The notes below the pieces were generated by a model. The model worked only from the letters and a program-made list of their open reading frames with translations, had not been told where the DNA came from and did no database searches. From contig NZ_JACHFJ010000006.1 in NCBI RefSeq assembly GCF_014201825.1, positions 83,262 through 147,261 on the forward strand: 64,000 bases of DNA. The letters run 5' to 3'. Origin of the DNA: Acidocella aromatica (GTDB lineage: Bacteria > Pseudomonadota > Alphaproteobacteria > Acetobacterales > Acetobacteraceae). Of the stretch, positions 2,375 through 12,901 are shown in pieces (within the stretch, counting starts at the first letter, position 1; the number at the start of each line of letters is the position of its first letter). The translations under genes and the position numbers were made by a program.

Positions 2375-3262
2375 TTACGCTTTGCCCTCGCGGATGAGCT
2401 TCAGCAGCGCCGCCACCGCACGGGAGCGGTAACGCTCCACATGCTGGACAGCATTGAACTCCCGGCCCGGAAGTGTGACACCGACCTTGACGAGCCGCCC
2501 CGCCGCGAGGCTTTCGGCACAGACCAGCGAGGACAACGCCGCCGGACCGGCTCCGCCTTCAGCCGCCGCACGCACAGCTTCGTTCGAGGGCAAGGCAATG
2601 GCGATACGTAAATCCTCATGCGCCAGGCCGAGGGCATGCAACGCTTCGGTAAATACCGCGCGCGTGCCGGAGCCGTCTTCGCGCAGCACCCAGCTTGCCT
2701 CGGCCAACGCCGCTGGCGACAAGGACATCTTTCCAGCCCAGGGATGCCCTGGTGAGACCACGACGATCATCTGATCGGTGCCAACGAGTTCCGTCGCCAA
2801 CTGCGGGTGGCTGACCGGGCCTTCCACAAACCCAAGCTCGGCATCGCCCTGGGCAACGGCGCGCACGACCTGCGCCGTGTTGCCAACCGCAACTGATAAT
2901 TCAATCCCGGGAAATCTGGCGTGAAACCGAACCAGCCAGTCGGGCAGAAAGTAGCTGGCAATGGTCTGGCTGGCATGAATGGTCAGACGCCCGCGCGCCA
3001 TCCCTGAAAATTCCGCCATGGCCGCCTCGGCCGAGTGCACGCGGGCGAGAATGGCTTTCGCCTCGTTGAAAAAGCAACGCCCCGCCTCCGTAAGCGTGAT
3101 GTTACGCCCGACACGGTGGAACAGCTTCAGCCCGAATTGCTGTTCGAGGGCCGAGATCGCAGACGATGCGGCGGATTGCGTCAGATTTAGCGCTTCCGCC
3201 GCGCGCGTGACATGCTCGCGCTCGGCTACGGCGGCGAAAATCCTCAGCTGTTCAAACGTCAT
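2375..3262 (-). CDS. LysR-family transcriptional regulator
   Basis: A 295-residue LysR-type activator. Residues ~1-60 form the winged helix-turn-helix (MTFEQLRIFAAVAE, then AAEALNLTQSAASSAISALE). The rest is the substrate-binding-like effector domain, with RLTIHASQTIASYFLPDWL at its start. The ATG at 3262 is preferred to the in-frame start 21 bp upstream because family members begin MTFEQLRIF. Its closest relative in the window is a broken copy at ~59.5-59.7 kb. Both share the same upstream DNA, so this protein probably regulates itself and divergent sulfur genes. A transposon now starts 97 bp upstream of the ATG and separates it from its former divergent partner, the TDT exporter at 11723. 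Confidence 0.9.
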   Translation of the reverse strand: MTFEQLRIFAAVAEREHVTRAAEALNLTQSAASSAISALEQQFGLKLFHRVGRNITLTEAGRCFFNEAKAILARVHSAEAAMAEFSGMARGRLTIHASQTIASYFLPDWLVRFHARFPGIELSVAVGNTAQVVRAVAQGDAELGFVEGPVSHPQLATELVGTDQMIVVVSPGHPWAGKMSLSPAALAEASWVLREDGSGTRAVFTEALHALGLAHEDLRIAIALPSNEAVRAAAEGGAGPAALSSLVCAESLAAGRLVKVGVTLPGREFNAVQHVERYRSRAVAALLKLIREGKA

Positions 3263-3358
3263 GCGCCGCCATGCTCCTGCCACAGGACATCAGGAAATAT
3301 TACACAAATCAATAATCCAGACAGATCGTTTTGAGAAGAACAATCAATTACTAAAATG
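3260..3358. repeat. Left half of duplicated LysR control region
   Basis: This stretch aligns without gaps to 59731-59829, upstream of the broken LysR copy. The alignment continues on the far side of the transposon (11458-11492 against 59830-59864). The two copies differ only by scattered substitutions. The repeat is thus a shared regulatory region, interrupted here by the insertion at base 3358/3359. Confidence 0.85.
3351..3358. repeat. Target-site duplication, left copy
   Basis: CTAATTTG-like AT-rich target; the actual octamer is CTAAAATG. It is repeated exactly at 11450-11457 on the other side of the element. Eight-bp duplications are usual for ISL3-family transposition. Confidence 0.9.
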
Positions 3359-3386
3359 GGCTATTTGCATTCTGAGGGTGGAATCG
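3359..3386 (+). repeat. Terminal inverted repeat, left
   Basis: It starts GGCTATTTGCA and ends GGAATCG. It matches the reverse complement of 11422-11449 at 23 of 28 positions; the outer 11 and the inner 8 bases are identical. Confidence 0.9.
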
Positions 3387-3405
3387 TAAAACCGTCACTT
3401 AGCCC

Positions 3406-3472
3406 GTTTCGTGCATAACTTGGTTGACTGGCACTACAATTCTGGTATGCTGTTTCGTGCATAACTTGGTTG
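3406..3472 (+). promoter_or_regulatory. hsd-tnp operon promoter bracketed by 21-bp direct repeats
   Basis: A sigma-70-like promoter, TTGACT (3424-3429), 16-bp spacer, TATGCT (3446-3451), precedes hsdM. Two identical 21-bp repeats flank it: 3406-3426 reaches into the -35 box and 3452-3472 begins just after the -10 box, covering the likely start of transcription. Both begin GTTTCGTGCATAAC. Such an arrangement suits a repressor that occludes the promoter. Each repeat ends in GGTTG, part of a GGTTGGA-like motif that also recurs near both transposon ends, so the transposase itself is a candidate binder. Confidence 0.6.
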
Positions 3473-3481
3473 GAGCGTGAA

Positions 3482-5500
3482 ATGGCAGAGTTGGCAGGTT
3501 CGGCGGCATCACTTGCGGATTTCATTTGGAAAAACGCCGAAGACTTATGGGGTGACTTCAAGCACACCGACTTTGGCAAGATCATCCTGCCATTCACATT
3601 GCTTCGCCGTCTGGAATGCGTACTGGAGGCGACTCGACAGGATGTCCGTGACGCTCATGTCGCGCATAAGGAATCCGGCATCGACATAGACCTGATCCTG
3701 CGCCAGACCACGCGCTACCCGTTCTACAACACGTCCGAGTATGAATTGAGTACGCTGGGCGGCAACAAGACCCGGCAAAACCTCCAGGACTACATCGCGC
3801 ACTTCTCGGACAACGCTCGCGTCATCTTCGAGCAGTTCGACTTCTCCAATACCGTGATCCGGCTCGATAAGGCCGGCGTGCTGTACAAGATTTGCAAGAA
3901 CTTCGCCGGCGTCGATCTGCATCCTGACGCGGTGCCGGATCGGGTCATGAGCAACCTCTACGAGCACTTGATCCGTCGCTTTGGTGCCGAGGTCAATGAA
4001 GGCGCTGAAGACTTCATGACACCCCGCGACGTGGTGCATCTCGCCACCGCGCTCCTGCTTGACCCGGATGACGCCCTGTTCGAGGCCAATCCCGGCCTGA
4101 TCCGCACCCTATACGACCCCACCTGCGGCACGGGCGGCTTTCTTTCCGACGCCATGAATCACGTTGCCGAATACGGCACTCGATTCAAGGTGCCGCCAGT
4201 GTTGATCCCTTACGGGCAGGAACTGGAACCTGAAACCCATGCCGTCTGCCTGACTGGCATGCTTCTACGTACTCTAGAGTCCGATCCTGGCAGGGACTTG
4301 TCCAAGAACATCAAGCTTGGCAGCACCCTGTCCAACGATCAGTTCGCTGGAGAGCGATTCCATTATGGACTTTCCAATCCGCCCTTCGGCAAGAAGTGGG
4401 AGAAAGATGCGGCGGCCATCAATGCAGAGCATGCCGAGAAGGGCTACGATGGGCGCTTCGGGCCTGGTTTACCGCGCATCAATGACGGCTCCATGCTGTT
4501 CCTCCTTCACTTGGCCAGCAAGCTGGAGCTGCGTGAAAACGGCGGAGGACGGGCGGCGATCGTTCTGTCCGGCTCTCCCCTCTTCAATGGCGGGGCTGGA
4601 TCTGGGGAGTCAGAAATTCGCCGTTGGCTTTTGGAGCACGATCTGGTCGACGTAATCGTGGCGTTGCCTACGGAAATCTTCTTCCGGACTGGCATCGGCA
4701 CGTATCTTTGGGTGCTTTCCAACAAGAAGCCTGAGCATCGCCGAGGCAAGGTGCAACTGATCAACGCGACCAGTCTGTGGACCTCGATCAAGAATGAGGG
4801 AAATAAGCGGCGGGCGATCAGTGACGATCAGTTGCGGCAGGTATTGGAAGTGTACGGGTCGACAGAGGACAGCGAATTCAGCCGAATGGTCGATTATCGA
4901 GTCTTCGGCTATCGGCGCATCAAGGTCCTTCGTCCGTTGCGGATGGCTCTCCACATCAACGAGGAAACGCTGGCCAAACTAAATGATGAAAAAGCCTTGG
5001 CCAAATTCTCGGACGCGCAGCGGGAGATATGGACGGAAGCCTTGCAGCCATATCTTGGCACCATTCAGCAGGTGTCCTGGGCGGAGTCTTTCGCGGCTGT
5101 AGTCGCTCGCACGTCACCCGTTGTCGGCAAGGTCGCAAAGCCGATCCTCAAGGCAATGGTCAATGCTTTCGGTACGCGTGATCCGGAAGGTGAACCGGTA
5201 CTAGACGCTGATGGTGAAACAGTTTCAGATCCCGATCTGACGGATTATGAGAATGTGCCACTTCTGGATGACGTCGATGAGTACCTGGCATGCGAGGTAC
5301 TTCCACATGTCGAAGACGCCTATATCGACCTCAGCTTTCGTGACAATAAAGACGGTGAAGTTGGCCGGGTCGGCTATGAGATCAATTTCAATAGGTTCTT
5401 CTACAAATACGTCCCACCGCGCGCCCTGCGTGAAATCGATGCCGATCTGAAGGCGGTCGAAGCGGACATCGCTGATTTGCTCAACGAGGTCACGGAATGA
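3482..5500 (+). CDS. hsdM: Type I restriction-modification methyltransferase subunit HsdM
   Basis: A 672-residue N6-adenine methyltransferase subunit. With HsdS it methylates the host recognition sites, and it is also part of the restriction complex. The N-terminal HsdM_N helical domain is followed by SAM motif I (DPTCGTGGFL, near residue 211) and catalytic motif IV (NPPFGKKW, near residue 299). The C-terminal ~180 residues are an acidic extension. The ATG at 3482 has GGAG 6 bases upstream; an in-frame TTG at 3470 lies inside the upstream direct repeat and is less likely. The stop overlaps the hsdS start (ATGA). Its base composition is visibly less GC-rich than the flanking chromosome, in line with acquisition on the transposon. 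Confidence 0.95.
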   Translation: MAELAGSAASLADFIWKNAEDLWGDFKHTDFGKIILPFTLLRRLECVLEATRQDVRDAHVAHKESGIDIDLILRQTTRYPFYNTSEYELSTLGGNKTRQNLQDYIAHFSDNARVIFEQFDFSNTVIRLDKAGVLYKICKNFAGVDLHPDAVPDRVMSNLYEHLIRRFGAEVNEGAEDFMTPRDVVHLATALLLDPDDALFEANPGLIRTLYDPTCGTGGFLSDAMNHVAEYGTRFKVPPVLIPYGQELEPETHAVCLTGMLLRTLESDPGRDLSKNIKLGSTLSNDQFAGERFHYGLSNPPFGKKWEKDAAAINAEHAEKGYDGRFGPGLPRINDGSMLFLLHLASKLELRENGGGRAAIVLSGSPLFNGGAGSGESEIRRWLLEHDLVDVIVALPTEIFFRTGIGTYLWVLSNKKPEHRRGKVQLINATSLWTSIKNEGNKRRAISDDQLRQVLEVYGSTEDSEFSRMVDYRVFGYRRIKVLRPLRMALHINEETLAKLNDEKALAKFSDAQREIWTEALQPYLGTIQQVSWAESFAAVVARTSPVVGKVAKPILKAMVNAFGTRDPEGEPVLDADGETVSDPDLTDYENVPLLDDVDEYLACEVLPHVEDAYIDLSFRDNKDGEVGRVGYEINFNRFFYKYVPPRALREIDADLKAVEADIADLLNEVTE

Positions 5501-6741
5501 GCCACTACAAGCCATATCCGGCCTACAAGGATTCCGGCGTCGACTGGATCGGGAATATGCCGCAGCACTGGGGCGTCAAGCCTATCAAGGTAATCGCCTC
5601 TTGCAATGACGACAGCCTGCCGGAGGCAATACCATTGGACATGCCGATTCGCTATGTCGATATCTCCGCAGTTAGCCACGATGGAGGTATTTCCGGCGCG
5701 GAGCCGATGGTATTTGGAGAAGCGCCTTCCCGCGCACGTCGCATGGCCAAGCTCGGCGATGTGGTCGTGTCTACCGTTAGGACATACTTGAAGGCGGTGG
5801 CGTCCGTTGATGAGGCGCACGCTGATTGCGTATATTCGACAGGATTTGCCGTTCTGCGCGCCCGCAGCGAGCAATTGGCTCCTGAGTTCCTCAAGTGGCT
5901 GGCGCTCAATGACTTGCTCATCCAAGCCGTTGAGTCACATTCCGAGGGGCTCAGTTATCCGGCGATCAATTCATCGGATCTGGTAAACCTCAAGGCAGTG
6001 GTGCCGGGATTGCCTGAACAAAAGCGCATTGCTGCAATTCTTGACCGCGAAACCGCCCGCATCGACGCGCTTATCGCGAAGAAAACGGAATTCATCGAAC
6101 TCCTTAAGAAAAAGATTGCCGCTTTGGCTTCTCAACCTCCGGATTCGCCCAATCTCAAGTGGGTTCGACTTTCACATGTCTGTGAGGTAGTTTCGCGCCC
6201 AGTGCTCCAGCAAGTTGGTAGTAGCTACACAAAACTTGGACTGTTCAATAGAGGGCGCGGAATTTTCAAACGGGACGAAACCGATACCGAAGATATGGGC
6301 GATTCTGAATTCTTTTGGATTCAGCCTGGCGACTTGATCCTTAGCGGTCAGTTCGCATGGGAGGGAGCAGTAGCATTGGCAAATGAAGATCATGCCGGAT
6401 GCGTTGTCTCTCATCGTTTCCCCGTCATCAGAGGGCGCAATAATGAAGCGCTTACCGAATACCTGCTCGCCTACTTCTTGACCGCCCACGGTGATTTTGT
6501 GCTGAACGACTGCTCCCGTGGTTCAGCCGGGCGCAACCGCCCCCTGAACATGAACCTGTTGCTAGGGTGGAAAATTCCAATTCCGGCGATGCCGATCCAA
6601 TGTGAGATTGCACGGCTCGTTCAACTGGAAAGGCGAATCGGGGAAAGGGTAAGCAAGAGCATTACTCTCCTAAAAGAGCGGCGTTCCGCCTTCATCACCG
6701 CTGCCGTCACAGGCCAAATCGACCTCCGGGGATCACCATGA
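5497..6741 (+). CDS. hsdS: Type I restriction-modification specificity subunit HsdS
   Basis: A 414-residue DNA-recognition subunit. It begins YKDSGVDWIGNMPQHW, a frequent HsdS opening. It has two target-recognition domains (roughly residues 20-180 and 220-385), each followed by a long helix: LPEQKRIAAILDRETARID with a Lys-rich coil in the middle, and VQLERRIGERVSKSI at the end. The two recognition domains read the two halves of a split target. The sequence of that target cannot be told from the protein alone. The gene is intact and overlaps both neighbours by 4 bp (ATGA), indicating translational coupling and fixed subunit ratios. Confidence 0.93.
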   Translation: MSHYKPYPAYKDSGVDWIGNMPQHWGVKPIKVIASCNDDSLPEAIPLDMPIRYVDISAVSHDGGISGAEPMVFGEAPSRARRMAKLGDVVVSTVRTYLKAVASVDEAHADCVYSTGFAVLRARSEQLAPEFLKWLALNDLLIQAVESHSEGLSYPAINSSDLVNLKAVVPGLPEQKRIAAILDRETARIDALIAKKTEFIELLKKKIAALASQPPDSPNLKWVRLSHVCEVVSRPVLQQVGSSYTKLGLFNRGRGIFKRDETDTEDMGDSEFFWIQPGDLILSGQFAWEGAVALANEDHAGCVVSHRFPVIRGRNNEALTEYLLAYFLTAHGDFVLNDCSRGSAGRNRPLNMNLLLGWKIPIPAMPIQCEIARLVQLERRIGERVSKSITLLKERRSAFITAAVTGQIDLRGSP

Positions 6742-9700
6742 GCGACACCGCCCATCAAGAAAAGCACTTTGAAGCCTATGTCGTTTCCAAGCTGGAGGCT
6801 CAAGGCTGGAAGGTCGGTAACACGCTTCAATATGATACTGAGCGCGCGCTTTATGCGGACGATCTCATCGCATGGCTAGAGGCTACCCAGCCAGAGAAGT
6901 GGACCAAGCTCCAGAAGGACAACGGCGAGCGTGCCCGAGACATATTGATGGACCGGCTGGCCAAGGCACTGGAACAACACGGCACCATGCATGTCATCCG
7001 CAATGGATTCTCGATTGCGGGTTGCGGCCATATCGACCTCACCGAAGCGGCCCCGGAAGACAAGCGCAACGACAAGGTATTGAAGCGCTACGCGGCCAAT
7101 ATCCTGCGCGTGGTGCCGCAGCTTGAATACCACCCAACCCGCAAGCTGGCGATTGACCTGGTGCTGTTCATCAACGGCATCCCGGTCGCTACCGTGGAAC
7201 TGAAGACCGACTTCACTCAGTCCGCAGAAGCGGCGATGGAGCAGTACAAGACCGACCGGCTGCCGTATGACCCCAAGACCAAGCGCCGCGAGCCACTGCT
7301 GACCTTCAAACGGGGCGCCGTGGTCCATTTCGCCATGTCCGATTCCGACATCCAGATGGCGACCAAGCTTGATGGCGAGAACACCACCTTCCTGCCGTTC
7401 AACCAGGGCAATGACGGCCATGCCGGCAACCCACCGCGCGAAGACAAGGAATACCCGGTCGCGTACTTCTGGGAGTCGATCTGCCAGCGGGATGCCTGGC
7501 TGCGCATCTTCCACAGCTTCGTCTATGTGGAAAAGAAGGATGTCGTCGACCTGAAAGGCAACTGGTCCAAGAAGGAAACCCTGATCTTCCCGCGCTACCA
7601 CCAGTGGGAATCGGTCAACGCCATGATCGCTGACTCCCGCGCCAATGGCCCTGGTATGCAGTATCTAGCAGACCAAAGTGCCGGCTCAGGAAAGACCAGT
7701 ACGATTTCATGGATGGCCCATGATCTGGTCAAGCTGCGCCGGGACAATGGCGAGGCAATCTTCAACAGCGTCATCATCGTCACCGACCGAAACGTGCTGG
7801 ACAGCCAGCTTCAGGATGCGGTCAAGCAGATCGATCATCAGTTCGGGGTGATCGCCGCCATCGACCGCCAGAAATCATCCAAGTCGAAAAGCAAGCAATT
7901 GGCGGAAGCGCTGCTGGCCAACACGCCGATTATCGTGGTCACTATCCAGACCTTCCCCTACGCGATGGAAGCTATCGTCACGGAGAAATCCCTGAAGGAC
8001 AAGAGCTTTGCGGTGATCATCGATGAGGCGCATGCCTCGCAAACGGGATCGACGGCTGCCAAACTCCAGACGGCACTCTCCATGAGCGGCAAGGGCAAGA
8101 TGTCCACGCTGACCGTGGAAGAACTGCTGGAAGAATTGCAAAAGTCGCGGGCACGGCCGAAGAACATTAGCTACTTCGCCTTTACAGGCACGCCTAAGCA
8201 TTCCACGCTCATGCTGTTCGGCCGTCCGGCTGATCCGTCACGCCCGGCCTCCAAGACCAACCTGCCGGAGCCGTTCCGACGGTATCCCATGCGCCAGGCC
8301 ATCGAAGAGGGCTTCATTCTCGATGTGCTCAAGGGCTACGTGCCCTACAAGACCGCTTTCAATCTTGCTAAGCAGATTGGTGATAGAAAGCGTGTCAGCG
8401 GCAAACATGCCAAACGGGCACTGGCACAGTGGATGTCCTTGCACCCGACCAATGTAACCCAGAAAGTACAGTTCATTATCGAGCATTTCCATAAGAACGT
8501 GGAATATCGCCTGGATGGCAAGGCTAAGGCGATGGTTGTCACCAGTTCTCGTGCCGCGGCCGTGCGCTACAAGAAAGGGTTCGACAAGTACATTGAGAAA
8601 CACCCGGAATACGCCGGCATTCACTCGCTGGTGGCCTTCTCCGGCAAGCTGACCGGCAAGCAGGTCATGCACTCCGATGATGAACGCATCGCCGGTGAGG
8701 TCTTCGTGGTTGACGAGATTGAGGAATTCACCGAGGTCAGCATGAATCCCGGTGTGACCCAGGATTTGCGGCTAGCCTTCGAGCGTCCGGAATATCGGGT
8801 GATGCTGGTAGCCGACAAGTTCCAGACCGGCTTTGATCAGCCAAAACTTGTTGCGATGTACGTGGACAAGAAGATCGCCAACGACGTGGAAATCGTTCAG
8901 ACCTTCTCGCGACTGAACCGCATCGCCCCCGGTAAGGATGAAATCTTCATCATTGATTTCGTCAACGATCCCGCCAATGTGCGGCGGGCATTCGCCATGT
9001 ACGACGATGGCGCCCAGATCGACGACATGCAAGACCTGAACGTGGTCTACGAGATCAAGGAATCGCTCGATGGCCAGGGGCTATACGAGGCGGAAGACCT
9101 TGCTGCCTTCAAGGAAGCTCGCTTCAAGACCATTCGTGACATCACCCAGGCGCAGGAGCCGCAGCACAAGGCGCTCTATGCCGCCACGGAGCGGCCAACG
9201 CGACTGTTCAATCAACGCCTGAAGATGCTGCGCGAAGCGGTGAATACGTGGGAATCCGCGTATGAGAAGGCGCACAGACAAGGCGACCAGGCAGGCATGA
9301 AGACGGCCGATCATCACCGCCGGGAGCATGCGGACCAGATCAAGAGCATCATGACGTTCAAGTCCGGTCTGGGCCGCTTCTGCCGCACGTACGCCTATAT
9401 CGCCCAGTTGATCGACTTCGGCGATCCTGAACTGGAAAATTATGCCTCGTTCGCCAAGCTGCTCCAGAAGCGGCTTAATGGTGAACCACCGGAGAGCGTC
9501 GACCTCAAGGGGCTCGTGCTGACTGGGTTCGACATCAAAGGTAAGGACGATGCCGCTGGTGACGAAGATGAGCCTCCGGTATTGAAGCCTGTCGGCCCCG
9601 GCACAGGCGGCGGAAAAAGTGACGATCCGCACTACCTTAACGAAATTATCGACCGACTGAACCACCTGTTTGGTGATGCGACTCCGCTGCGTGACCAAGC

Positions 9701-9965
9701 GACTTTCGTCAATCACATCGTCTCGATTGCTCGTGAAAACGATGTCGTGATGGCGCAGGTGGAAAACAACTCCCGCGAGCAGGCACTGAAGGGAAACTTG
9801 CCCGGAGCGGTGCAGCAGGGAGTGGTTCGAGCGCTGACATCCCATCAAAAACTGGCGACCTTGGTGCTGAAGTCCGACCGCCAAGCCATGTCCGGCCTGA
9901 CCGACGTAATTTACGAGTTGATCAGGGAGCGCCGCGACATCGATTTGGACGACATCGGTGCTTGA
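6738..9965 (+). CDS. hsdR: Type I restriction enzyme subunit HsdR
   Basis: A 1,075-residue restriction and translocation subunit. The N-terminal PD-(D/E)xK nuclease shows IDLVLFINGIPVATVELK near residues 138-155. The helicase-like motor follows, with Walker A (QSAGSGKTS, near 312), the DEAH box (VIIDEAHASQ, near 427) and FAFTGTPK (near 479). The C-terminus is an all-helical region that docks on the methyltransferase. All catalytic motifs appear intact, so the system should be restriction-competent if assembled. The last 8 bp overlap the start of the transposase gene, which is unusual for restriction operons and ties mobility to the defence genes. Confidence 0.95.
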   Translation: MSDTAHQEKHFEAYVVSKLEAQGWKVGNTLQYDTERALYADDLIAWLEATQPEKWTKLQKDNGERARDILMDRLAKALEQHGTMHVIRNGFSIAGCGHIDLTEAAPEDKRNDKVLKRYAANILRVVPQLEYHPTRKLAIDLVLFINGIPVATVELKTDFTQSAEAAMEQYKTDRLPYDPKTKRREPLLTFKRGAVVHFAMSDSDIQMATKLDGENTTFLPFNQGNDGHAGNPPREDKEYPVAYFWESICQRDAWLRIFHSFVYVEKKDVVDLKGNWSKKETLIFPRYHQWESVNAMIADSRANGPGMQYLADQSAGSGKTSTISWMAHDLVKLRRDNGEAIFNSVIIVTDRNVLDSQLQDAVKQIDHQFGVIAAIDRQKSSKSKSKQLAEALLANTPIIVVTIQTFPYAMEAIVTEKSLKDKSFAVIIDEAHASQTGSTAAKLQTALSMSGKGKMSTLTVEELLEELQKSRARPKNISYFAFTGTPKHSTLMLFGRPADPSRPASKTNLPEPFRRYPMRQAIEEGFILDVLKGYVPYKTAFNLAKQIGDRKRVSGKHAKRALAQWMSLHPTNVTQKVQFIIEHFHKNVEYRLDGKAKAMVVTSSRAAAVRYKKGFDKYIEKHPEYAGIHSLVAFSGKLTGKQVMHSDDERIAGEVFVVDEIEEFTEVSMNPGVTQDLRLAFERPEYRVMLVADKFQTGFDQPKLVAMYVDKKIANDVEIVQTFSRLNRIAPGKDEIFIIDFVNDPANVRRAFAMYDDGAQIDDMQDLNVVYEIKESLDGQGLYEAEDLAAFKEARFKTIRDITQAQEPQHKALYAATERPTRLFNQRLKMLREAVNTWESAYEKAHRQGDQAGMKTADHHRREHADQIKSIMTFKSGLGRFCRTYAYIAQLIDFGDPELENYASFAKLLQKRLNGEPPESVDLKGLVLTGFDIKGKDDAAGDEDEPPVLKPVGPGTGGGKSDDPHYLNEIIDRLNHLFGDATPLRDQATFVNHIVSIARENDVVMAQVENNSREQALKGNLPGAVQQGVVRALTSHQKLATLVLKSDRQAMSGLTDVIYELIRERRDIDLDDIGA

Positions 9966-11238
9966 TCTACTGAATCTTCCGGGCGTTGTTCCTGTCGATC
10001 TTCGTACAGGCAACAAGTGCATCATCGTTGTCGCCAACGTGGACGATGGTGATTTGCAGCAATGCCCTGATTGCAACAAACCCATGTACCGGCATGGACG
10101 CAGAACGAATGTGTTCGCAGATACGCCGATGCAAATGCAGCCGGTACGTTTGGAAATCTCCCGGCCACGCTATCGCTGCACAAGCTGCGGAGCAATGGTC
10201 ACCCCTGAATTGACGTTTCTGGATGAAAAGCGCCGGGCGACAAAACGGTTGGTGGACGCCATTCGGGAGCGCTGCCTTGGAATGACCTTCCATGCGCTCG
10301 CCGAGCAAACCGGTTTGGCAGTCAATACCATCAAGAGCATCGCCCAAGACTTGATCGCGGATTTGGAGCGCACGGTTCTCTATGAAACGCCCGTCATCAT
10401 GGGTATCGATGAAGTCAATCTGGCAGGTGAGATGCGGTGCGTCATCACCAATCTAGCGACGAACAACGCCTTTCAGATGCTTGAGTTTCGGACCCAAGAG
10501 CATCTGAAGCCATTCTTCAAGAACCTGCCCGACAGGGAAAAGGTGGAATGGGTCTGCACGGACATGTGGCGGCCGTTCAAGCGATCATTCAGCAAATACT
10601 TGCCCAATGCTCGCCTGGTCATCGACAAGTTCCATGTGGTTGCAATGGCATCAGAAGCGCTGGAAACGGTGCGCAAGAAGCACCAAGCTACGCTGGACAA
10701 GACGGAACGTATCAAGGTCAAGAAGTCGATCCGGTGGCTTACCTTGAAGCGACCCCACAACCTCTCGTCGGCCGAAGTTGAAGCGTTGGCGGTTGTCCGG
10801 CAAGTGATCCCTGACCTTGCTTTGGCCTATGACTTCAAGGAGGCTTTCTACCGAATTTACGATGATCCGGTCAAGGAGTCGGCCATGCGGGCGTTCGAGG
10901 CTTGGGAAAACTCATTGCCGGATGAGCTAGATGGTTTCCGTAGTCTGGCCAAGACAGTCCACAATCATTATGACGACATCTTTGCCTACTGGGACTCGCC
11001 AAGCCGAATCACGAACGCATACACAGAAGGCTTGAATGGGCTGACCAAGGTCGCTAACCGCATGGGGCGGGGATATAGCTACGAGATCATTCGGGCGAAG
11101 ATGCTGTATGCCAAGTATGCACGGAGGGTCGGGAGCGGTGTTCGAGTAGCGGAGAAGACGGGCGGCTCTGAAACCGTCGAGTACGGCCCGCATATTCCAA
11201 CCTTGGTTGAGATGGCGGAATCTGGTGGCCTGGATTAG
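9958..11238 (+). CDS. ISL3-family transposase
   Basis: A 426-residue transposase starting at GTG 9958, inside the end of hsdR. The N-terminal zinc ribbon uses C36-x2-C39 and C74-x2-C77. A helix-turn-helix follows (FHALAEQTGLAVNTIKSIAQ). The DDE catalytic triad is visible as D151 (IMGIDEV), D202 (VCTDMW) and E357 (NAYTEGLNG, then KVANRMGRGYSYEII), as expected for the ISL3 family. There is no Shine-Dalgarno sequence beyond what lies in hsdR, so its translation likely depends on ribosomes finishing hsdR. That would keep transposase low and co-expressed with the cargo. Confidence 0.95.
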   Translation: MLDLLNLPGVVPVDLRTGNKCIIVVANVDDGDLQQCPDCNKPMYRHGRRTNVFADTPMQMQPVRLEISRPRYRCTSCGAMVTPELTFLDEKRRATKRLVDAIRERCLGMTFHALAEQTGLAVNTIKSIAQDLIADLERTVLYETPVIMGIDEVNLAGEMRCVITNLATNNAFQMLEFRTQEHLKPFFKNLPDREKVEWVCTDMWRPFKRSFSKYLPNARLVIDKFHVVAMASEALETVRKKHQATLDKTERIKVKKSIRWLTLKRPHNLSSAEVEALAVVRQVIPDLALAYDFKEAFYRIYDDPVKESAMRAFEAWENSLPDELDGFRSLAKTVHNHYDDIFAYWDSPSRITNAYTEGLNGLTKVANRMGRGYSYEIIRAKMLYAKYARRVGSGVRVAEKTGGSETVEYGPHIPTLVEMAESGGLD

Positions 11239-11449
11239 GCGGCGATAAGAGTTCCTACCTCGCTTCGCTGCGGGATCGAGCCGAGGCTGCGTTTTATTGG
11301 AAAACCGGGCCATATGGACATGAATTCCAACCAACAACACCTTGCGTTTGATCTGGCTTGATTGGCAATTTCCAACCAGCAGGCTGGCAGAACTTCAGGC
11401 CGATTCAACTGCAAAATTGCTCGATTCCAACCCTAGTTTGCAAATAGCC
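11239..11449. repeat. Right end of the transposon with subterminal repeats and inverted repeat
   Basis: This non-coding 211 bp holds three copies of TTCCAACC (11325-11332, 11370-11377, 11425-11432), spaced 45 and 55 bp. The last lies inside the right terminal inverted repeat (11422-11449). On the left end, in the opposite orientation as expected, are GGTGGAA (3377), GGTTGAC (3422) and GGTTGGA (3468), spaced 45 and 46 bp. These look like ordered transposase-binding sites at both ends. Confidence 0.6.
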
Positions 11450-11457
11450 CTAAAATG
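11450..11457. repeat. Target-site duplication, right copy
   Basis: CTAAAATG, identical to 3351-3358. Joining the two flanks with a single copy restores the uninterrupted sequence whose homologue is at 59.8 kb. Confidence 0.9.
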
Positions 11458-11655: not shown

Positions 11656-11671
11656 ATCCATTATACAAATG
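11656..11671 (-). promoter_or_regulatory. Candidate operator shared with 2293-2341
   Basis: Read leftward this is CATTTGTATAATGGAT, 15 of 16 bases like the arm at 2293-2308. It sits 51 bp before the exporter ATG, where a repressor could block transcription. The SqrR/BigR-like regulator at 14.3 kb is the natural candidate. Confidence 0.45.
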
Positions 11672-11722
11672 GCTTTATACTCTCTAGATCTCCGCCCAGC
11701 CACCGGCAGAAAGGATCAGGTC

Positions 11723-12901
11723 ATGTTCGGTATCAGCAGACCCTTTGCCCATCACGACCATCCGAGCGAGATCGTCCGGCAATTCACGCCGAACTGGTTC
11801 ACCGTGACGATGGGAACCGGCGTCTTGGCTCTGGCGCTCAACCAGTTTCCGCTGGCGCAACCGGCGCTGCACAGGCTGGGGGCGATCATCTGGCAGGCGA
11901 ATATCGGTCTCTTCACCCTTTGCACCGTTCTGTATGTGGCGCGCTGGATCTTCTACCCCCATTCAGCGGTAAAGATCTTCAGCCATCCGGTCATGCCGAT
12001 GTTCCTCGGCGCGATCCCGATGGGGCTTGCGACTATCGTCAACGGCTTCCTCGCCTTTGGCATCGGCGCCTATGGGGCGCAGGCGATCGCCATCGCCCAG
12101 GCTTTATGGTGGGTGGATGCCGGGCTTGCCGCCGGCATCGGGCTGCTGGTGCCGTACATGATGTTCACGCGGCAGGAACACAGCATCGAAAACATGACCG
12201 CCGTCTGGCTGCTGCCGATCGTGGCCTGCGAAGTGACCTCGGCAAGCGGCGGGCTGCTCGCGCCGCACTTGGCGGACCACATCGCCGCCGCGCATCTGCT
12301 GTTCACCTGTTATCTGTTCTGGGCGCTCTCGGTGCCGCTGGCCATGGGTATTCTGGTCATCCTGTTCCTGCGCCTGGTGCTGCATAAGCTGCCGCGGCGG
12401 GATATGGCGGTTTCCACATGGCTGGCCCTGGGCCCGCTTGGCACCGGCGCCCTGGCGCTGCTTGTGCTGGGGCATGACGCCCCGTCCATTCTGGGCGCTG
12501 TCGGCATGGCGGACATCGGCACCGTGGCGCAGGGGATCGGCCTGATCGGCGGGCTGGTGATCTGGGGTTACGGCGCTTGGTGGCTCGTGATGGCCGTGGC
12601 CATAACCTTCTCCTATCTGCGCGAGGGACTGCCCTTCAACATGGGCTGGTGGGGCTTCACCTTCCCGCTGGGTGTGTTCACTCTGGCGACATTGAGCCTA
12701 GGGGGGCAGACCGGCATGAGCTTCTTCACCGTCCTCGGGGCAGTGCTGGTCGTCGCCCTCGTGGGGTTCTGGCTGATCGTCGCTACCCAGACCTTCATCG
12801 GCGCTTACAAGGGACATCTGTTCGCCGCCCCCTGCCTGAACAGCGCTTCCAGACTCTCAAAGGAAACAGGGCTGCCGGCAGCAACGGCCTCCGCGCGTTG
12901 A
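11723..12901 (+). CDS. TDT-family (TehA/SLAC1/Ssu1-like) anion exporter
   Basis: A 392-residue membrane protein with about ten helices. The stretch FTPNWFTVTMGTG near residue 20 is the hallmark of tellurite-resistance/dicarboxylate transporters, a family that includes the sulfite exporter Ssu1 and plant anion channels. The ATG at 11723 has AAAGGA 7 bases upstream and is preferred to an in-frame ATG 54 bp earlier. Next to sulfide:quinone oxidoreductase, sulfite or another sulfur oxyanion is a reasonable substrate, but the sequence alone does not prove it. It was formerly divergent from the LysR gene at 3262. Confidence 0.8.
   Translation: MFGISRPFAHHDHPSEIVRQFTPNWFTVTMGTGVLALALNQFPLAQPALHRLGAIIWQANIGLFTLCTVLYVARWIFYPHSAVKIFSHPVMPMFLGAIPMGLATIVNGFLAFGIGAYGAQAIAIAQALWWVDAGLAAGIGLLVPYMMFTRQEHSIENMTAVWLLPIVACEVTSASGGLLAPHLADHIAAAHLLFTCYLFWALSVPLAMGILVILFLRLVLHKLPRRDMAVSTWLALGPLGTGALALLVLGHDAPSILGAVGMADIGTVAQGIGLIGGLVIWGYGAWWLVMAVAITFSYLREGLPFNMGWWGFTFPLGVFTLATLSLGGQTGMSFFTVLGAVLVVALVGFWLIVATQTFIGAYKGHLFAAPCLNSASRLSKETGLPAATASAR

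What the first reader, a model, noticed from the sequence alone, without database searches (positions are those of the whole stretch)
3351..11457. A single transposon that carries a complete type I restriction-modification operon
Seen: matching 28-bp ends, an exact 8-bp target duplication, and four same-strand genes (hsdM, hsdS, hsdR, ISL3 transposase) that fill the interior with overlaps of 4, 4 and 8 bp. Known: ISL3 elements make 8-bp duplications and sometimes carry passenger genes; type I systems usually move on islands or plasmids. Inference: this is a self-contained mobile defence unit in which methylation, restriction and transposition are one operon. I know of no well-described unit built this way.
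Basis: partly seen in the sequence, partly recalled or inferred. Interest (0 to 1): 0.95.

Follow-up and report, generated by a model that had tools for sequence, protein, structure and literature searches.

The report
Transposon carrying a restriction-modification operon
This is a jumping-gene element of an already catalogued but little-described kind that carries a full set of DNA-defence genes ahead of its own transposase gene, and because copies of its end repeats also overlap the predicted promoter of those genes, the transposase likely acts as their on-off switch as well.

Summary
Window 3359-11449 (8,091 bp) has inverted ends, an exact 8-bp duplication (CTAAAATG), and hsdM, hsdS, hsdR and an ISL3 transposase gene on one strand, overlapping by 4, 4 and 8 bp. 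The neighbouring LysR/SLAC1 pair lies side by side without the element in 22 of 24 sibling loci examined. That no such unit is known is wrong: ISKpn25 (8,154 bp, K. pneumoniae plasmids) has the same gene order and homologous ends, and its transposition is published. So this is a new member of a known kind. I add: 19 elements with exact duplications; hsdR upstream in 51 of 51 loci whose transposase gene keeps its 5' end; HsdM, HsdR and transposase diverging together while HsdS is exchanged; and a left-end design in 32 of 33 elements, where two further copies of the end repeat, 44-46 bp apart, hold the predicted -35 box and the hsdM Shine-Dalgarno. In a distant relative with a different end sequence the internal copies differ in step. 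I infer, untested, that the transposase represses the operon that encodes it and so controls a restriction-modification system.

The parts
3351..3358 (.). Left copy of the 8-bp target duplication, CTAAAATG
   Evidence: Exact match to 11450-11457; no equivalent ends plus duplication in 200 shuffles
3359..3386 (+). Left terminal inverted repeat (GGCTATTTGCATTCTGAGGGTGGA...)
   Evidence: homologous left ends in the 33 elements
3411..3428 (+). Internal copy 1 of the end motif (predicted transposase-binding site); its end is part of the predicted -35 box TTGACT (3424-3429)
   Evidence: Weight matrix built from terminal repeats only; promoter scan hit 3424-3451; equivalent in 32 of 33 left ends
3446..3451 (+). 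Predicted -10 box TATGCT, 16-nt spacer, TG before it
   Evidence: TAnnnT at the same fixed place in 20 of 31 distinct segments against 1.0 expected
3457..3474 (+). Internal copy 2 of the end motif, 46 bp after copy 1; GGTTGGAG (3468-3475) at its end is the predicted hsdM Shine-Dalgarno
3482..5500 (+). hsdM, type I DNA N6-adenine methyltransferase (672 aa from ATG 3482; the ORF opens at 3470)
   Evidence: PF02384 1.6e-48, PF12161 2.1e-21; NPPF motif
5497..6741 (+). hsdS, specificity subunit (414 aa)
   Evidence: PF01420 in two stretches; PADLOC Specificity_I models
6738..9965 (+). hsdR, restriction subunit (1075 aa); GSGKT and DEAH motifs; nuclease-type residues D140, E154, K156 invariant in 32 aligned members
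9958..11238 (+). tnp, ISL3-family DDE transposase (426 aa, GTG start overlapping the hsdR stop by 8 bp); D151, D202, E357 present
   Evidence: PF01610 1.4e-55; NF033550 9.3e-93; residues
11325..11332 (-). Inner right-end copy of the end-motif core (GGTTGGAA on the - strand)
   Evidence: Read; not scored against shuffles
11370..11377 (-). Second inner right-end copy of the end-motif core (GGTTGGAA on the - strand)
   Evidence: Read; not scored against shuffles
11422..11449 (-). Right terminal inverted repeat
11450..11457 (.). Right copy of the target duplication, CTAAAATG
2375..3283 (-). Target context, left: LysR-type regulator gene, directly divergent from the SLAC1 gene in siblings
11669..12901 (+). 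Target context, right: SLAC1-type anion channel gene, here 8 kb from its usual LysR neighbour

Best explanation
The 8,091-bp stretch is an ISL3-family transposon of the ISKpn25 kind that carries type I hsdM, hsdS and hsdR genes with its transposase gene last, and the transposase likely also represses this predicted operon by binding the copies of its end repeat that overlap the predicted promoter and the predicted hsdM ribosome-binding site. Shown by sequence: ends, duplication, gene order, deviating base composition, element-free sibling sites, hsdR upstream of tnp throughout the relatives examined, joint divergence of HsdM, HsdR and Tnp, exchange of HsdS, and a conserved three-site left end. 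Inferred: on arrival in a cell without transposase the promoter is open; M, S, R and, through overlapping genes, some transposase are made; as transposase accumulates it occupies the terminal repeat and both internal copies and lowers expression of the whole operon. Restriction-modification would help to keep the element in its host and block competing DNA, while transposition into A+T-rich sites would move the whole defence unit between replicons.
For: Ends plus duplication: 1 observed, 0 in 200 shuffles. 19 of the 24 loci where both ends and both flanks could be read have exact duplications, 86% A+T. hsdR upstream in 51 of 51 loci whose tnp keeps its 5' end, of 55 examined. 52 transposases of type I-bearing loci lie on one side of a branch, 100/100. 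Distance correlations Tnp-HsdM 0.95, Tnp-HsdR 0.97, Tnp-HsdS 0.34; none reached in 2000 permutations (32 elements). Two internal copies of the end motif 44-46 bp apart in 32 of 33 left ends; 0 of 6,400 control windows inside hsdR have two as good. TTG of a -35 at the end of copy 1 in 31 of 32; TAnnnT at a fixed place in 20 of 31 distinct segments against 1.0 expected; GGTTGGAG in 27 of 33. Internal copies resemble their own element's ends more than other elements' ends: mean 12.27 of 18 against 11.72 permuted, 0 of 5000 permutations as high; without L149 12.20 against 11.79, 1 of 5000. In L149, whose end motif differs, own 14.75 against a mean of 9.95 (best 12.00) for other elements' copies. 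ISKpn25 transposes (PMC8768599, passages).
Against: No binding or expression data. The internal copies could serve only assembly of the transposition complex, or resemble the ends through recombination between repeats; the covariation effect is small apart from L149. The promoter is a prediction: 11 of 31 segments, ISKpn25's included, lack TAnnnT at the fixed place, and a promoter scan of this element alone finds fewer hits (3) than shuffles do (mean 4.3). The window's own copy 1 scores 11.0, below the weakest true end (14.1). L025 lacks copy 1 and the predicted promoter, yet keeps the genes. In L149 the Shine-Dalgarno is not part of copy 2. Five loci with both ends (L009, L011, L013, L014, L085) have flanks that differ at 2-7 of 8 positions. 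Mobility of this copy is not shown.
Confidence: 0.6

Rival explanations
1. An ordinary ISKpn25-like transposon in which the internal copies of the end repeat serve only transposition (extra transposase contacts at one end), while the genes are expressed constitutively or under host control.
For: Two more distant ISL3 elements without type I genes (L089, an ISPpu12 relative, and L090) also have an internal end-like copy about 60 bp inside the left end. Right ends of several members carry extra copies too.
Against: The copies stand at fixed distances from a predicted -35 and -10 and from the hsdM start codon (copy 2 ends 7 nt before it in 27 of 33), which transposition alone does not require.
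Confidence: 0.33
2. A fixed, inactive relic: the element inserted once, is no longer mobile, and persists because the restriction system is useful or addictive.
For: Single copy in this genome; terminal repeats match at only 19 of 24; in 36 other genomes of the genus the transposase search gave only two weak hits at 29% identity. One relative, L031, keeps an open transposase frame with two catalytic aspartates replaced.
Against: D151, D202 and E357 are intact here, all four frames are open, and the duplication is exact.
Confidence: 0.05
3. A resident chromosomal type I operon that was captured locally between a simple ISL3 insertion sequence and a chance end-like sequence.
For: The same genome holds a second N6_Mtase gene on another contig, and type I systems are commonly chromosomal (recalled).
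Against: No hsd or tnp hit at the LysR/SLAC1 site in 24 sibling loci; exact duplication; the same unit with ends outside hsdM in 18 other elements with exact duplications; Tnp, HsdM and HsdR diverge together.
Confidence: 0.02

Closest known systems
ISKpn25 (ISL3 family; K. pneumoniae pKPN4, NC_009650)
   Same: Gene order hsdM-hsdS-hsdR-tnp; 8,154 bp between ends with duplication GAAATTAG; homologous ends and the same two internal copies; transposase 71% identical
   Different: hsdR and tnp do not overlap; no TAnnnT at the -10 place; too diverged to be the same named IS (naming threshold recalled)
ISSm4-family elements (Serratia, Aeromonas, Citrobacter and other plasmids)
   Same: Transposase 76-77% identical with hsdR beside it; in the two read in full (L048, L088) type I genes lie inside ends with exact 8-bp duplications
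   Different: Extra YhcG-type PDDEXK nuclease gene between hsdM and hsdS; 9.1 kb
ISPpu12 / ISPst2-type ISL3 elements with passenger genes
   Same: Passenger genes ahead of the transposase gene, ends closing in GGTTGAT; ISPst2 listed with 8-base direct repeats (PMC6305408, passages)
   Different: Metal-transport or permease cargo, transposase about 33-34% identical, no HsdM or HsdR relative found
Controller (C) proteins of type II restriction-modification systems (recalled, no call)
   Same: An autorepressor encoded with the R-M genes and acting at repeated operators over their promoter: the role inferred here for the transposase
   Different: C proteins are small helix-turn-helix regulators, not transposases, and serve type II systems; an analogy of working only, no membership claimed

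Membership tests
ISL3 family of insertion sequences | DDE transposase with the ISL3 domains | tested here: met
   PF01610, PF13542, PF14690; NF033550 311.2 bits against cut-off 180; D151, D202, E357
ISL3 family of insertion sequences | Terminal inverted repeats and an 8-bp target duplication | tested here: met
ISKpn25-like type I transposons | hsdM-hsdS-hsdR-tnp in one direction inside the ends, tnp last | tested here: met
   ISKpn25 itself
ISKpn25-like type I transposons | Transposase in the same clade and homologous ends | tested here: met
   One side of a branch, 100/100; shared end consensus
ISKpn25-like type I transposons | Observed transposition | not testable with these tools
   Published for ISKpn25 (passages), not for this copy
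Type I restriction-modification system | M, S and R subunits with catalytic motifs | tested here: met
Type I restriction-modification system | Methylation of a bipartite motif and ATP-dependent restriction | not testable with these tools
   No methylation or phage data
Transposase-autorepressed operon (analogy to controller proteins) | Transposase binds copies 1 and 2 and lowers expression | not testable with these tools
   Only indirect: position, conservation and covariation

The most novel reading that the evidence does not exclude
In this old lineage of ISL3 transposons the transposase is the controller of the restriction-modification system: its own end-binding sites were built into the promoter and ribosome-binding site, so one protein sets both how often the element moves and how strongly its host restricts foreign DNA, with a burst of modification, restriction and transposition on entry into a naive cell.
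Probability: 0.5. Interest if true: 0.75.

Novelty: new member of a known kind. Interest (0 to 1): 0.5.

Why it matters
In the relatives examined one branch of ISL3 transposases goes with one type I system: HsdM, HsdR and Tnp have diverged together, while the specificity subunit and an accessory slot (Abi_2, GmrSD, RhuM, YhcG, PIN and others) turn over. That gives defence specificity a mobile vehicle; 1,623 plasmid records have a best transposase match at 60-80% identity, many of them partial. If the transposase also represses the operon, one protein would answer two regulatory problems, how an R-M system enters a naive host without killing it and how a transposon limits itself, and this can be tested in E. 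coli K-12.

Tried and rejected
Considered and rejected: chance ends (0 in 200 shuffles); local capture of a resident operon; that the unit is unprecedented. A single origin of all type I cargo is not claimed: the sister branch (4 transposases, 100/100) mixes a type I element (L149), an MmeI-like methylase with helicase and T5orf172-type nuclease (L124, whose left end lies beyond its contig), a transposase without such cargo directly upstream (L150) and one with too little sequence upstream (L125).

Rows dropped before counts: 4 of the 46 genome loci (L042, L044, L046, L047) hold only pieces of tnp without its 5' end and are not in the 51. hsdM was seen in 37 of the 51; the other 14 hold only 0.7-6.6 kb upstream of tnp. 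Four of the 37 gave no usable left end (L003, L007, L029 cut by the contig end; L038 with a run of N), leaving 33. Of loci with both ends, L036 and L045 reach a contig end and could not be tested for duplications. L025 was left out of the -35 count, the hsdR control and the covariation test because its copy 1 is missing. L128, L130 and L131 were left out of the trees because of stops in the aligned frame, L132 out of the second tree for its very long branch. HsdS distances rest on tblastn spans, so the HsdS correlations are rough. Twenty of 38 extra ORFs of at least 110 aa (either strand) were scanned against Pfam. The right end of L122 was not sought. The absence of HsdM/HsdR in distant ISL3 loci rests on tblastn with the window's proteins (E up to 1e-3), so very diverged type I genes could be missed.

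Passages were read in eight papers; the rest were seen only in listings. None of what I saw describes the promoter-embedded repeats or control of the operon by the transposase; only open-licence full texts are held. No structure prediction was run; it would not decide the regulatory question.
Full report
What is there. The element runs from 3359 to 11449 (8,091 bp) and is flanked by CTAAAATG on both sides. Its ends match at 19 of the outer 24 positions. In the 10.5 kb around it one pair of positions has such ends plus an exact 8-bp duplication, and none in 200 shuffles. Inside, on one strand, lie hsdM, hsdS, hsdR and an ISL3 transposase gene, overlapping by 4, 4 and 8 bp. Domain searches support all four, and methylase, nuclease-type, ATPase and DDE residues are present. 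The element is 55.7% GC against 61-66% in the rest of the window. The transposase gene occurs once in the genome.

Insertion site. The element lies between a LysR-type regulator gene and a SLAC1-type channel gene. A search of the genus (38 genomes, own included) with the right flank gave 24 loci, each from another genome, that hold a SLAC1 relative. In 22 of the 24 the LysR gene lies beside it, divergent, first aligned residues 62-129 nt apart; in two (L055, L057) no LysR gene was found in the stretch held. None of the 24 has a hit to HsdM, HsdS, HsdR or the transposase. The insertion therefore split a conserved divergent pair. In 36 other genomes of the genus the transposase search gave only two weak hits at 29% identity. 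The host is probably a relative of Acidocella, judged only from names attached to 70-74% hits of the SLAC1 protein.

It is a known kind. Plasmid records annotate the nearest relatives there as ISSm4 and ISKpn25. ISKpn25 on pKPN4 has the same gene order, and my end search finds it as 8,154 bp with duplication GAAATTAG, the published length. One paper lists its four ORFs (PMC8796155, passage). One calls its hsdM a passenger gene (PMC5142620, passage). One captured it in an E. coli trap plasmid, with seven insertions listed each with an 8-base repeat (PMC8768599, passages). One reports raised copy number after colistin exposure (PMC12217459, passages).

The family. I examined 55 loci: the window, the 46 genome loci and eight plasmid stretches. 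In 51 the transposase keeps its 5' end, and all 51 have hsdR upstream; in 50 the distance, by alignment, is between an 8-nt overlap and 31 nt, in L020 it is 416 nt. Both ends and both flanks could be read in 24 loci: 19 have exact 8-bp duplications, and five (L009, L011, L013, L014, L085) differ at 2-7 of the 8 positions. The 19 duplications are 86% A+T against 51% in the left flanks. In 12 more distant ISL3 loci with at least 2 kb upstream (transposase 29-36% identical) no relative of the window's HsdM or HsdR was found. The 52 transposases of type I-bearing loci lie on one side of a branch with 100/100 support. Most come from Pseudomonadota; single records are titled Paenibacillus, Holophagaceae, Campylobacterales and Neomarinimicrobiota, the last three being metagenome bins. 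Next to this branch lies a sister branch of four. One of them, L149 on a Geoalkalibacter plasmid, also holds type I genes, with HsdM 40%, HsdR 39% and Tnp 37% identical to the window's and its own exact duplication, so the association is either very old or arose twice. Another, L124, has an MmeI-like methylase, a helicase and a T5orf172-type nuclease in front of tnp.

What is kept and what is swapped. Over 32 elements with nearly full M, R and Tnp, distance correlations are 0.97 (M-R), 0.95 (M-Tnp) and 0.97 (R-Tnp), but 0.34-0.39 with HsdS; median identities of M, R, Tnp and S are 74, 77, 72 and 33%. Elements 94-97% identical in their aligned parts, in Pantoea and Klebsiella (L022, L053rc), fail to align in two stretches inside hsdS and lie at unrelated sites. 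Two ISSm4-type copies 99.6-99.9% identical in their aligned parts (L048, L088) fail to align over about 480 bp at the start of hsdS and lie at different sites with different duplications. Of 37 loci with hsdM and hsdR both seen, 20 carry at least one further same-strand ORF of 110 aa or more between them; the window has none. Of 20 such proteins scanned (of 38 extra ORFs), 9 have Pfam hits: YhcG nuclease, RlaP, GmrSD, PIN, Abi_2, RhuM, RhuM-Fic, Schlafen AlbA_2 and a weak Clp_N.

The left end. A weight matrix built only from terminal repeats finds two further copies between the left end and hsdM in 32 of 33 elements, 44-46 bp apart (46 in 26, 45 in 5, 44 in 1); in these 32 at most 6 of 500 shuffles reach the weaker copy. 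Of 6,400 stretches of equal length taken inside hsdR of the same elements, none has two as good. Copy 1 ends in the TTG of a -35 box in 31 of 32. A TAnnnT -10 stands at a fixed place in 20 of 31 distinct segments against 1.0 expected. Copy 2 runs into GGTTGGAG, the predicted Shine-Dalgarno, in 27 of 33. L122, with a 48-49% identical transposase, shows the same layout. In L149 the end motif is different (TGGAAT...TGTTGAA) and both internal copies carry that motif, 45 bp apart; there copy 2 lies some 95 nt before the start codon and is not the Shine-Dalgarno. Over 34 elements, internal copies resemble their own ends more than others' ends: mean 12.27 of 18 against 11.72 permuted, 0 of 5000 as high; without L149 12.20 against 11.79, 1 of 5000. 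The effect is small except in L149 (own 14.75; its ends against other elements' copies, mean 9.95, best 12.00; other elements' ends against its copies, mean 11.11).

Reading. The parsimonious view is that one protein, the transposase, recognises ends and internal copies, and that its binding would block the promoter and the ribosome site. Two natural variants bear on this. L025 is shorter by exactly the distance between the copies, 46 bp, and has lost copy 1 and the predicted promoter. L031 has both catalytic aspartates of the transposase replaced while the frame stays open, and no right end met the search, as expected if binding is kept without cutting. Each is a single case and could be decay.

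Against. Nothing here shows binding or repression. Eleven of 31 segments, ISKpn25's included, lack the -10 pattern at the fixed place. A promoter scan of this element alone finds 3 hits against a mean of 4.3 in shuffles. The window's copy 1 (11.0) is weaker than the weakest true end (14.1), and those of L006 and L031 (5.6) weaker still. Two ISL3 elements without type I genes also have one internal copy near the left end. Recombination between repeats could also make copies resemble their own ends.

Verdict. A real transposon with type I cargo, a new member of the ISKpn25 kind. The new and testable part is the inferred double role of the transposase. Nothing that I saw in ten paper searches describes it; most listed papers were not opened, and only open-licence texts are held.

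Noticed in passing
L031:10001-11266 (record titled Paenibacillus sp. cl123): Open, full-length ISL3 transposase frame with both catalytic aspartates (equivalent to D151 and D202) replaced, behind open hsdM, hsdS and hsdR frames; no right end met the search. P0115 also lacks the second aspartate.
   Followed up: partly
L025:3316-3402 (Paraglaciecola polaris): Left end shorter by exactly 46 bp, the distance between internal copies 1 and 2; predicted promoter lost, perhaps by recombination between the copies.
   Followed up: partly
L124/L135:34-6569: Sister ISL3 transposase preceded by an MmeI-like methylase/target-recognition protein, a helicase and a T5orf172-type nuclease: perhaps a second kind of defence cargo with tnp last.
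   Followed up: partly
L149:1-8404 (Geoalkalibacter subterraneus pGSUB1): Deep relative with type I genes, exact duplication AAAATAAA and a different end motif that recurs in its internal copies.
   Followed up: yes
between hsdM and hsdR in 20 of 37 related loci: Accessory slot with Abi_2, GmrSD, RhuM, RhuM-Fic, YhcG nuclease, RlaP, PIN and AlbA_2 proteins; the window's element has none.
   Followed up: partly
L048 and L088 (ISSm4-type, Aeromonas plasmids): Two elements 99.6-99.9% identical except about 480 bp at the start of hsdS: an apparent exchange of one recognition domain between otherwise near-identical transposons.
   Followed up: partly
PMC8796155 Table 1a (passage): ORF functions given for ISKpn25 appear swapped: the first ORF is labelled transposase and the last methylase, opposite to the annotation of NC_009650.
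   Followed up: no
G000:C19:7069-8025: A second N6_Mtase gene, scoring higher against PF02384, in the same genome outside the window.
   Followed up: no
L122, reverse complement, just before its left end at about 3258: This 48-49% identical relative appears to lie shortly beside a tRNA-like sequence (seen by eye, not tested with a tRNA search).
   Followed up: no
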